Part shown: positions 52,450 through 54,319 of the stretch, in pieces
Numbering within the stretch: the stretch's first letter is position 1
How the letters are laid out: each line of letters begins with the position of its first letter
Origin: an uncultured Opitutia bacterium
Lineage (GTDB): Bacteria > Verrucomicrobiota > Verrucomicrobiia > Opitutales > UBA953
Length of the DNA stretch: 64,000 bases
Assembly (NCBI GenBank): GCA_903840355.1
Contig: CAIMFJ010000005.1
Span: forward strand, 1-64,000
Reading direction: 5' to 3'
Made by a program: the position numbers and the translations under genes
The notes under the pieces: model-generated
Told to the model about the DNA's origin: nothing
Database searches by the model: none
Seen by the model: the letters and a program-made list of their open reading frames with translations, nothing else

Positions 52450-53430
52450 TTAAGGACTCAACTGCACCGTAACCATGTCCGAGAAGTGCGCGGCCGTAAT
52501 CCAGCGTGGGCTACCATTAGCGGCGAGGGGGAGGAAATTATCAATTACGCCAATAAAAATTTGGTCGCCCAAGCGAAGGTAGCCGACGCCCACGACTTCA
52601 TGACCCCAAGATAAGTGGGGCTTTTGGGGCACGGGTACCGTGCAGGAAAGGAGGACGGGCCGGGCTGCTTCAAGTTCGCTCAAATAAACCTTCGGGTCGA
52701 AGGGTCGGTGTTGAATGGTGGCATGCAGGCCGCAGGCTGTTGCATCGGCTTTTAAGCCCTCGGCTAAGTTGGCAGGAAAAGCCCCAGCTAAGGCCATGGT
52801 TTTATCGGTGTAGCCCGCCTCGTCGGGAATCACCGACATCGTCAGCCGTTGGCGCAAGCGTTGGGTCAATGCGTCATATTTTAAATCAGACGGACACCAT
52901 GAGCGATAACCACGCTGCGACCAGTATGCGATTAAACTAGCTCCAGCGGTCGGCACGCAACCGGAGGCCACGATGTTGGAGGGCGTGCTCTGGATGGGGA
53001 ATTGCTGCAACGGCGGAACGTCGGGCAAGAAAATCAGATTAGGTTGTAAGGTTTTGTCCGCAGTTTTGGTCACACTGCGGTAAGCCTTTTGCCAGAGACC
53101 TTGGGAGTCGGAGAGCAGAAATTCCTCCAGGGCATAGGGGGCTTGAGTTGACCACGAGAGGTAGCCGGTAATTTCATGAGGACCCTTGAAGTCGGCCCAC
53201 CAGAGATTTTCGGGCGTGTCCTGCCAAGCGCCTTTTTGGCCTTTAATTTCTCGGGTATTTTCGAGTTTGAGTTGAAAGTCTTTGGACTCGGAGATGTAGA
53301 TGCTTTGTTGAAAGAACTGCTGCAGGGAGTTCAACTGCGACTCGCCAGAGTTCGAAGGCGTCGGGGCTGGCCGGCAACTGGCGAGCAGCAGGGCGCCGAG
53401 ACCGATGAGAACGGGGTGGGAGGCTTTCAC
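52450..53430 (-). CDS. C39-like cysteine-peptidase lipoprotein
   Basis: A 326-residue lipoprotein: MKASHPVLIGLGALLLASC ends in the lipobox cysteine C19. After a linker the catalytic domain shows the cysteine in VASGCVPTAGASLIAYW and the histidine in WGHEVVGVGYLRLGDQIFIGVIDNF, as in C39-like papain-fold peptidases. No transporter is adjacent, so it is not a bacteriocin exporter of the ABC type. It overlaps the deacetylase-like gene by four bases (ATGA) and is translated after it. Substrate unknown; an envelope location is supported by the lipobox. Confidence 0.82.
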   Translation of the reverse strand: MKASHPVLIGLGALLLASCRPAPTPSNSGESQLNSLQQFFQQSIYISESKDFQLKLENTREIKGQKGAWQDTPENLWWADFKGPHEITGYLSWSTQAPYALEEFLLSDSQGLWQKAYRSVTKTADKTLQPNLIFLPDVPPLQQFPIQSTPSNIVASGCVPTAGASLIAYWSQRGYRSWCPSDLKYDALTQRLRQRLTMSVIPDEAGYTDKTMALAGAFPANLAEGLKADATACGLHATIQHRPFDPKVYLSELEAARPVLLSCTVPVPQKPHLSWGHEVVGVGYLRLGDQIFIGVIDNFLPLAANGSPRWITAAHFSDMVTVQLSP

Positions 53431-54227
53431 TTGTTACTCGCGGGCGGGTGTAGGCTGGTCGTGTACTGGCTGGCGGTCATTGCTTGCCAACCTTCGGTCT
53501 TTAAGAAGTCGACAATTTTTAGAAAATCGCGATACGAGTTTTCGTCCCATTGGGCACCGTGGCCTTGTAAAACGAGTGGTGAAGTCAGCGTTTTCTGGCG
53601 CTTGCTGGTTTGATAGCTATTTAAGAAAGTATCCGCGCTGATTTTTCCCGTAGCGATTTCGAGGTTGAGCGTACGCTTGAGAATTTGCCGGCGCTTATCT
53701 GAGCCTGGTCCGTAAAACCAGATTGAAAGTTCCGGGGTTTGATCGAGTGCGGTGGCTGTTTGTTCGTCGACTTGGTTGTAAGGAGCTCCGAAGGTGTGAA
53801 AAGTCAGGCCGGTTGTTTTGGTGAAGAGGGCGCAAGCGGCCTTGAGGTGTTCGACCTGAGTGTTTAGGGGCGTGCCTTTAAACTCATACGACTTTTGGCC
53901 ATCGGCGGCGGTGGTGGCTTGGTGGTCGAGCCCATGGAGCCAGAACTCGATGAGTCCGCCGTTTTCGAGGGCATGCTTTTTAATCCAGGCCACGTCTTCG
54001 GCATTGGGATTGGAGAGGGAGTTGCAGATCACTCCCATCGTGACAGGGATTTTTTGTTGTTCGGACCAGTCGGCGATGCGTTTGAAGCCGGGACTCAGGC
54101 GACTTTTTTCGCCGGCCCGCACGTCGTCGATTTTCCAGATAACCACTTTCGAGTCTGCGGCCGAGACCGATAAGGTTAGGCTAGATAACAGGCTAACGAC
54201 CATGAGGCGGGAAACAAAGCGCAGCAT
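53427..54227 (-). CDS. Exported polysaccharide-deacetylase-like protein
   Basis: From ATG 54227 the protein has 266 residues with signal peptide MLRFVSRLMVVSLLSSLTLSVSA. A longer frame reaches 54275 but would run into the tRNA at 54251, so it is rejected. The core resembles NodB/DUF2334-type deacetylases: VIWKIDDVRAG (Asp-Asp pair), IPVTMGVICNSL, EFWLHGLDHQ with two histidines, FHTFGAPYNQVD and the late LVLQGHGAQWD. Such enzymes usually remove acetyl groups from glycans. The gene begins 24 bases downstream of the aberrant tRNA-Gly and overlaps the C39-like gene. Confidence 0.72.
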   Translation of the reverse strand: MLRFVSRLMVVSLLSSLTLSVSAADSKVVIWKIDDVRAGEKSRLSPGFKRIADWSEQQKIPVTMGVICNSLSNPNAEDVAWIKKHALENGGLIEFWLHGLDHQATTAADGQKSYEFKGTPLNTQVEHLKAACALFTKTTGLTFHTFGAPYNQVDEQTATALDQTPELSIWFYGPGSDKRRQILKRTLNLEIATGKISADTFLNSYQTSKRQKTLTSPLVLQGHGAQWDENSYRDFLKIVDFLKTEGWQAMTASQYTTSLHPPASNK

Positions 54228-54250: not shown

Positions 54251-54319
54251 AGCAGGCGGCAGGACTTAAACCCACATCTCTACCCTGGAAGGGTAACGCT
54301 TTAATTAAGCTACGCCCGC
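54251..54319 (-). tRNA. Aberrant tRNA-Gly(UCC)-like gene
   Basis: The minus strand folds into a full cloverleaf: acceptor GCGGGCG / CGCCTGC with discriminator T (54251), D stem GCTT/AAGC, anticodon stem TTACC/GGTAG with loop CTTCCAG (anticodon TCC at 54287-54289), and T stem GTGGG/CCTGC. G1-C72, C2-G71, C35, C36 and U73 are glycine-type. Oddities: the D loop is AATTA, short and without G18G19; the T loop is TTTAAGT with U in place of C56; the third acceptor pair is G3-U70, a major alanine identity element; the variable loop has four bases; and CCA is not encoded (CCC). All stems are intact. Either a dedicated non-ribosomal tRNA or a decaying copy. Confidence 0.75.

What the first reader, a model, noticed from the sequence alone, without database searches (positions are those of the whole stretch)
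54251..54319. tRNA-Gly(UCC) lacking both partners of the D-loop/T-loop contact, with a G3-U70 pair
Seen directly: every stem pairs, but D-loop G18G19 and T-loop C56 are both absent, so the pairs G18-psi55 and G19-C56 that lock the tRNA elbow cannot form. The joint loss with intact stems argues against simple decay. Established: some staphylococcal tRNA-Gly(UCC) genes have lost the D-loop GG and avoid the ribosome, serving glycine transfer to peptidoglycan. Also seen: G3-U70, the main alanyl-tRNA synthetase determinant, inside a glycine-type body. Inference: this may be a dedicated non-ribosomal aminoacyl carrier, possibly charged with glycine or alanine.
Basis: partly seen in the sequence, partly recalled or inferred. 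Interest (0 to 1): 0.85.

Follow-up and report, generated by a model that had tools for sequence, protein, structure and literature searches.

The report
Phage-type glycine tRNA missing its elbow
A bacterial chromosome carries a spare glycine tRNA that lacks the contact which normally locks a tRNA's elbow; nothing like it was found in several hundred related bacteria, but the same unusual build recurs in tRNAs of unrelated phages, so it is most likely a phage-derived tRNA and not a cell-wall glycine carrier.

Summary
Window 54251-54319 (-) is a genuine tRNA-Gly(UCC): Rfam 52.7 bits, 21/21 stem pairs, D-loop AAUUA without G18G19, T-loop UUUAAGU (C56 to U), G3-U70. It is supernumerary: the genome has a canonical Gly(UCC)/(CCC) pair and a Gly(GCC). 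It is not a recent copy of its own Gly(UCC) (37/69 identical). It is absent from 36 congeners, and its signature hits no other genome among 388 Verrucomicrobiota.

The staphylococcal analogy is not supported. There is no FemAB homologue above threshold, the EF-Tu-weakening pairs are absent, and relatives do not conserve it. G3-U70 sits in a glycine context (U73, C2-G71) lacking A73 and G2-C71.

The same build recurs on phage contigs of several isotypes: a D-loop shortened by the GG, variable region AGAY, and frequent C56 loss. Across 17 members, 98.5% of acceptor, D and T stem cells pair, with strong covariation. Phage Gly(UCC) genes share G38, where 36 canonical chromosomal Gly(UCC) have A38.

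Best reading: a horizontally acquired, phage-type elbow-less tRNA-Gly, probably glycine-charged and a marginal or stress-resistant decoder. Decay is not excluded. Expression and charging are untested. The recurrent elbow-less phage class, which I did not find described, is the interesting part.

The parts
54251..54319 (-). elbow-less tRNA-Gly(UCC), 69 nt, CCA not encoded
   Evidence: ARAGORN, Rfam RF00005 52.7 bits; 21/21 stem pairs; signature pattern 1 hit vs 0 in 100 shuffles of the window
54302..54306 (-). 5-nt D-loop AAUUA lacking G18G19 (A14 A15 U U A21)
   Evidence: sequence; canonical Gly(UCC) of another family in the class aligns with exactly two extra bases here
54264..54270 (-). T-loop UUUAAGU (C56 replaced by U)
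   Evidence: sequence; C56 lost in 7 of 17 GG-less tRNAs vs 0 of 111 chromosomal ones
54276..54279 (-). 4-nt variable region AGAU
   Evidence: AGAY precedes the T-stem in 9 of 10 GG-less tRNA-like viral hits found without requiring it, vs 1 of 112 chromosomal tRNAs
54285..54291 (-). anticodon loop CUUCCAG (anticodon UCC; G38 able to pair with C32)
   Evidence: 36 other Gly(UCC) sequences collected all carry A38; G38 shared with phage Gly(UCC) L272, L291, L336 group, L339, L348
54368..54397 (-). weak sigma-70-like promoter TTTACA-N18-AACAAT upstream of the tRNA
   Evidence: consensus scan, 9 of 12 matches; not evidence of function
53427..54227 (-). DUF2334 (polysaccharide-deacetylase-like) gene starting about 24 nt downstream of the tRNA, same strand
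   Evidence: Pfam PF10096 E 1.3e-10; no phage gene in the neighbourhood

Best explanation
The gene is an intact, supernumerary tRNA-Gly(UCC) of a phage-type structural class in which the D-loop GG is deleted, so the G18-psi55 and G19-C56 elbow pairs cannot form, and the fold instead relies on the remaining core (U8-A14, A15-U48, variable region AGAU). It most likely reached this chromosome from a phage or another mobile element. Its most likely activity is charging with glycine by the host GlyRS and use as a minor GGA/GGG decoder, possibly retained because its altered elbow and G38 anticodon loop make it a poor target for tRNA-attacking enzymes. Shown: anatomy, supernumerary status, absence in relatives, recurrence of the architecture in phages. 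Inferred: direction of transfer, charging, decoding, resistance to nucleases.
For: Real tRNA with 21/21 pairs. Canonical Gly isoacceptors exist, so it is extra. Not a recent paralogue: 37/69 to own Gly(UCC); it carries U73 where own Gly(UCC) has A73. Absent from 36 congeners by blastn and by a covariance model. Two signature patterns hit only this genome among 388 and 384 sampled genomes, overlapping sets. The same patterns hit viral contigs, where most hits fold as cloverleafs of several isotypes. 17 members: 98.5% of cells paired, covariation 0.905 vs 0.226 shuffled. L272, a phage contig with integrase, Erf, SSB and RusA, carries a 69-nt tRNA-Gly(UCC) with 52/69 identity, same AGAU and same G38; the model of the window tRNA scores it 77 bits, above every canonical Gly(UCC) in the phylum sample (at most 66). 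L298 (terminase, portal) carries one with AAUUA, UUUAACU and G38.
Against: By plain pairwise score, canonical Gly(UCC) of another family in the class is slightly nearer (55/69 with a clean 2-nt GG deletion, score 38.5) than L272 (52/69, score 35), so an independent GG deletion after acquisition from a bacterium is possible. No phage gene or duplicated tRNA end lies nearby. No related copy exists for testing selection. C32-G38 and U33-A37 could close the anticodon loop, which would hinder decoding. GG-less tRNAs in chromosomes outside Verrucomicrobiota were not surveyed.
Confidence: 0.5

Rival explanations
1. A foreign or duplicated tRNA gene that has lost its role and is in an early stage of decay; the stems are intact only because little time has passed.
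For: Canonical Gly(UCC) exists; no relative keeps the gene; C56U and G3-U70 are single-step damage; no encoded CCA; the predicted ensemble is mixed; own lineage does not need it.
Against: 21/21 pairs although it differs at 14 of 69 aligned positions from the nearest canonical tRNA; A15-U48 and U13-A22 are coordinated; the same D-loop, variable region and C56 loss occur in well-folded phage tRNAs.
Confidence: 0.25
2. A canonical tRNA-Gly(UCC) of another Verrucomicrobiota family was acquired and lost its GG independently; the likeness to phage tRNAs is convergent, because deleting GG always gives a loop of the form AAnnA.
For: 55/69 identity to the family f24 Gly(UCC) with only a 2-nt gap; the phage forms also look like GG deletions of canonical loops, e.g. 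crAss-like tRNA-Trp AATGGTA vs AAGTA in L276.
Against: G38 is absent from the 36 other Gly(UCC) collected but shared with several phage lineages; AGAU fits the phage class; no other GG-less case in 388 Verrucomicrobiota genomes.
Confidence: 0.3
3. Dedicated non-ribosomal glycine (or alanine) carrier for cell wall or another aminoacyl-transfer pathway, as in staphylococci.
For: Loss of G18G19 and an extra UCC isoacceptor resemble the staphylococcal tRNAs (PMC4052509).
Against: No FemAB and only a sub-threshold PF13480 hit; EF-Tu-weak T-stem pairs absent; not conserved in the genus; neighbours unrelated.
Confidence: 0.05
4. A tRNA-like regulatory element in the 5' leader of the DUF2334 gene.
For: The tRNA ends about 24 nt before the start codon on the same strand with no terminator found between.
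Against: Full tRNA with anticodon and glycine identity elements; the arrangement is not known in relatives.
Confidence: 0.05

Closest known systems
GG-less phage tRNA-Gly(UCC) on IMG/VR contigs L272, L298/L291, L336 group, L339, L347, L348 (found here)
   Same: glycine UCC anticodon, D-loop reduced to AAnnA without GG, mostly AGAU variable region; U56 in L298, G38 in most
   Different: phage-encoded; closest pair only 52/69 identical; L272 has G4-U69 instead of G3-U70 and keeps C56; L336 group has an 8-nt anticodon loop and a 6-nt T-loop
Staphylococcal non-proteinogenic tRNA-Gly(UCC) (Giannouli 2009, described in PMC4052509)
   Same: extra UCC isoacceptor lacking G18G19
   Different: there GG is replaced by UU or CU with weak EF-Tu pairs A49-U65 and A51-U63 and FemXAB present; here GG is deleted, C56 is lost, T-stem is G49-C65/G51-U63 and no FemAB was found
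Type II mitochondrial tRNAs and tRNA-Pyl (PMC7609411)
   Same: no G18G19; the TpsiC sequence is not conserved; short D-loop in tRNA-Pyl
   Different: different isotypes and origin; tRNA-Pyl has one linker nucleotide and a 6-bp anticodon stem
Bacillus cereus tRNA-Other pseudo-tRNA (PMC3399842)
   Same: supernumerary non-canonical bacterial tRNA gene
   Different: Trp anticodon, flanks a genomic island, poorly charged; no sequence relation tested
Anticodon-loop-mutated phage tRNAs (PMC10264068)
   Same: phage tRNAs with altered anticodon loop (compare G38)
   Different: that paper concerns anticodon loops; D-loop, T-loop and Gly are not mentioned in its text

Membership tests
tRNA (Rfam RF00005) | score over the gathering threshold and full cloverleaf | tested here: met
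   52.7 vs 29 bits; 21/21 pairs
Bacterial tRNA-Gly identity set (PMC9976931 Table 1) | U73, G1-C72, C2-G71, C35, C36 | tested here: met
   sequence; set
Bacterial tRNA-Gly identity set (PMC9976931 Table 1) | G3-C70 | tested here: not met
   G3-U70
Bacterial tRNA-Ala identity set (PMC9976931 Table 1) | A73, G2-C71, G20 besides G3-U70 and G4-C69 | tested here: not met
   U73, C2-G71, no G20; only G3-U70 and G4-C69 present
Staphylococcal non-proteinogenic tRNA-Gly | loss of G18G19 | tested here: met
   D-loop AAUUA
Staphylococcal non-proteinogenic tRNA-Gly | weak EF-Tu pairs A49-U65 and A51-U63 | tested here: not met
   G49-C65 and G51-U63
Staphylococcal non-proteinogenic tRNA-Gly | FemABX-type transferase in the genome | tested here: not met
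   PF02388 none; PF13480 one hit at 18.2 bits, below the 22-bit cut-off
GG-less phage tRNA architecture (defined here) | 5-nt D-loop AAnnA, no GG | tested here: met
GG-less phage tRNA architecture (defined here) | AGAY variable region | tested here: met
   AGAU
GG-less phage tRNA architecture (defined here) | phage genes around it | tested here: not met
   neighbours are DUF2334, C39-like, 3-keto-disaccharide hydrolase, DLH and glnS/gltX-like ORFs; no duplicated tRNA end in the window
GG-less phage tRNA architecture (defined here) | expressed and charged | not testable with these tools
   needs RNA

The most novel reading that the evidence does not exclude
Phages repeatedly evolve a distinct class of elbow-less tRNAs (GG deleted from the D-loop, AGAY variable region, C56 free to drift) that escape enzymes recognising the tRNA elbow or anticodon loop, and this chromosome has domesticated one, a glycine tRNA.
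Probability: 0.25. Interest if true: 0.75.

Novelty: new variant of a known kind. Interest (0 to 1): 0.55.

Why it matters
The G18-psi55 and G19-C56 elbow contacts are among the most conserved features of tRNAs, and many maturation and decay enzymes read them. A recurrent class of well-folded phage tRNAs without them, plus a chromosomal member, suggests that bacterial systems can keep cloverleafs lacking this lock. It makes two questions testable: whether the bacterial ribosome uses such tRNAs, and whether losing the elbow protects a tRNA from defence nucleases.

Tried and rejected
Blastn of the tRNA in phages, plasmids and 384 class genomes gave nothing useful; the one class hit (G186) is a chance match in a leucine-rich-repeat coding gene. 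A covariance model of the single tRNA found only canonical tRNAs in relatives; a 39-bit hit in congener G027 (L210) is not a tRNA by ARAGORN or Rfam. Synteny: a close homologue of the DLH gene occurs in 23 of 40 congeners, but none has the tRNA or another window neighbour beside it in the flanks held. Cultured phages: probes with GG-less tRNAs from L272, L261, L259, L276, L284, L274, L291 and the marine group gave no clear GG-less relative; the crAss-like tRNA-Trp hit has a normal GG. Full-text searches found no paper describing GG-less phage tRNAs. Staphylococcal-type carrier, alanine carrier and leader element were considered and marked down as in the rivals.

Full report
Observation. The window holds a tRNA-Gly(UCC) gene on the minus strand at 54251-54319, found by ARAGORN and by Rfam RF00005 at 52.7 bits against a cut-off of 29. 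The RNA is GCGGGCG UA GCUU AAUUA AAGC G UUACC CUUCCAG GGUAG AGAU GUGGG UUUAAGU CCUGC CGCCUGC U. All 21 stem pairs are standard; four are G-U, among them G3-U70. U8-A14 is kept, and the 15-48 (Levitt) pair is A15-U48. G38 can pair with C32, and the minimum-energy fold extends the anticodon stem accordingly. CCA is not encoded.

It is an extra gene. The genome (2.27 Mb, 8 contigs, 99.27% complete) has 43 RF00005 matches above threshold, among them a canonical Gly(UCC)/Gly(CCC) tandem on C4 and a Gly(GCC). The window gene shares only 37 of 69 aligned positions with the own Gly(UCC) and has U73 where that gene has A73. It is therefore not a recent duplicate.

It is not inherited within the genus. 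Blastn in 36 congeners and 20 order members finds nothing significant; a covariance model of the gene finds Gly(GCC) in most congeners and no match with the variant's D-loop, apart from one non-tRNA hit. Two sequence signatures of the D-loop and T-arm each hit only this genome, among 388 Verrucomicrobiota genomes and 384 genomes of the class; the two samples overlap. Its nearest canonical relative is Gly(UCC) of another family in the class, 55/69 identical with exactly two bases (GG) deleted.

The architecture recurs in phages. A pattern for a GG-less D-arm followed by a T-arm, scanned over IMG/VR, gave 11 contigs, most with cloverleafs. In 9 of 10 tRNA-like hits the T-stem is preceded by AGAY although the pattern did not require it, against 1 of 112 chromosomal tRNAs. 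Further patterns gave more. Seventeen members aligned: in the acceptor, D and T helices 98.5% of cells pair, 13 of 16 pairs show double changes, and the covariation score is 0.905 against 0.226 in shuffles and at most 0.206 in slid versions. These are structured RNAs and not chance hits, although L259 has no anticodon stem. C56 is lost in 7 of 17 members and in none of 111 chromosomal tRNAs. One caution: ARAGORN favours canonical T-loops, so that contrast is somewhat inflated; the less biased part is that the viral patterns did not require C56.

Glycine members. L272 is a phage contig (integrase, Erf, SSB, RusA, DnaC-like) with a 69-nt Gly(UCC), 52/69 identical to the window gene and sharing AGAU and G38. 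The window model scores it 77 bits, more than any canonical Gly(UCC) in the phylum sample (at most 66). L298 (terminase, portal) carries a Gly(UCC) with D-loop AAUUA, T-loop UUUAACU, AGAU and G38, though with one bulge in its T-stem. More GG-less Gly(UCC) genes are in the L336 group, L339, L347 and L348 and in a marine group of contigs. By my count 5 of 8 such lineages have G38, whereas the 36 other Gly(UCC) sequences collected by then all have A38. Phage Gly(UCC) genes with a normal GG can also have G38 (L292, L299), so G38 marks phage tRNAs and not GG loss itself.

Mechanism. The identity elements U73, G1-C72, C2-G71, C35 and C36 fit GlyRS; G3-U70 replaces the favoured G3-C70; A73, G2-C71 and G20 of the alanine set are missing (PMC9976931). 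Glycine charging is therefore the best guess. Position 32-38 pairing is known to affect ribosome binding and glycine codon reading (PMC10853795), so decoding may be weak. Phage tRNAs have been proposed to survive host anticodon nucleases through loop mutations (PMC10264068); G38 fits that idea but no nuclease was tested. The staphylococcal route is not supported: no FemAB, one sub-threshold PF13480 hit, no EF-Tu-weak pairs (PMC4052509), no conservation.

What remains open. Direct phage origin versus independent GG loss in an acquired bacterial gene cannot be settled with 70 bases; plain identity slightly favours the bacterial parent, the structural details favour the phage class. No phage gene lies beside the tRNA. 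Expression, charging and function are untested. My stepwise estimates: real tRNA 0.98; horizontally acquired 0.75; shares the phage-type architecture 0.85; of direct phage origin 0.5; functional as a glycine acceptor 0.55; used in translation 0.45.

Noticed in passing
L305 and about 28 related IMG/VR contigs (L302-L332; tRNA at L305:7-75): Marine phage group with a tRNA-Gly-like gene lacking the D-loop GG and with G at position 33 (loop UGUCCAA); about nine distinct sequences, no match in cultured phages.
   Followed up: partly
L259:11717-11785 and L261:2472-2546: Phage tRNA-like genes with the window's exact D-arm; L259 has an unpaired anticodon arm, L261 a 13-nt anticodon loop; ARAGORN misses both.
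   Followed up: partly
L336, L342, L343, L345, L357, L361: Six contigs with GG-less Gly(UCC)-like genes having an 8-nt anticodon loop, one mismatch in the anticodon stem and a 6-nt T-loop.
   Followed up: no
genome G000: No 16S rRNA, tRNA-Ala(UGC) or tRNA-Ile(GAU) was found; probably the rRNA operon is missing from the assembly.
   Followed up: partly
L025 (own Gly UCC/CCC) and order relatives: Canonical Gly(UCC) in this order carries discriminator A73 instead of the bacterial U73, while Gly(GCC) mostly keeps U73.
   Followed up: no
L209:498-571 (congener G021): tRNA-Gly(GCC) with one base missing in the anticodon stem compared with other congeners; sequencing error or decay.
   Followed up: no
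L210 around 500-570 (congener G027): tRNA-like hit (39 bits in the window model) that is not a tRNA by ARAGORN or Rfam; a GGTGAAAATCCC stretch recalls a cobalamin riboswitch, not confirmed.
   Followed up: no
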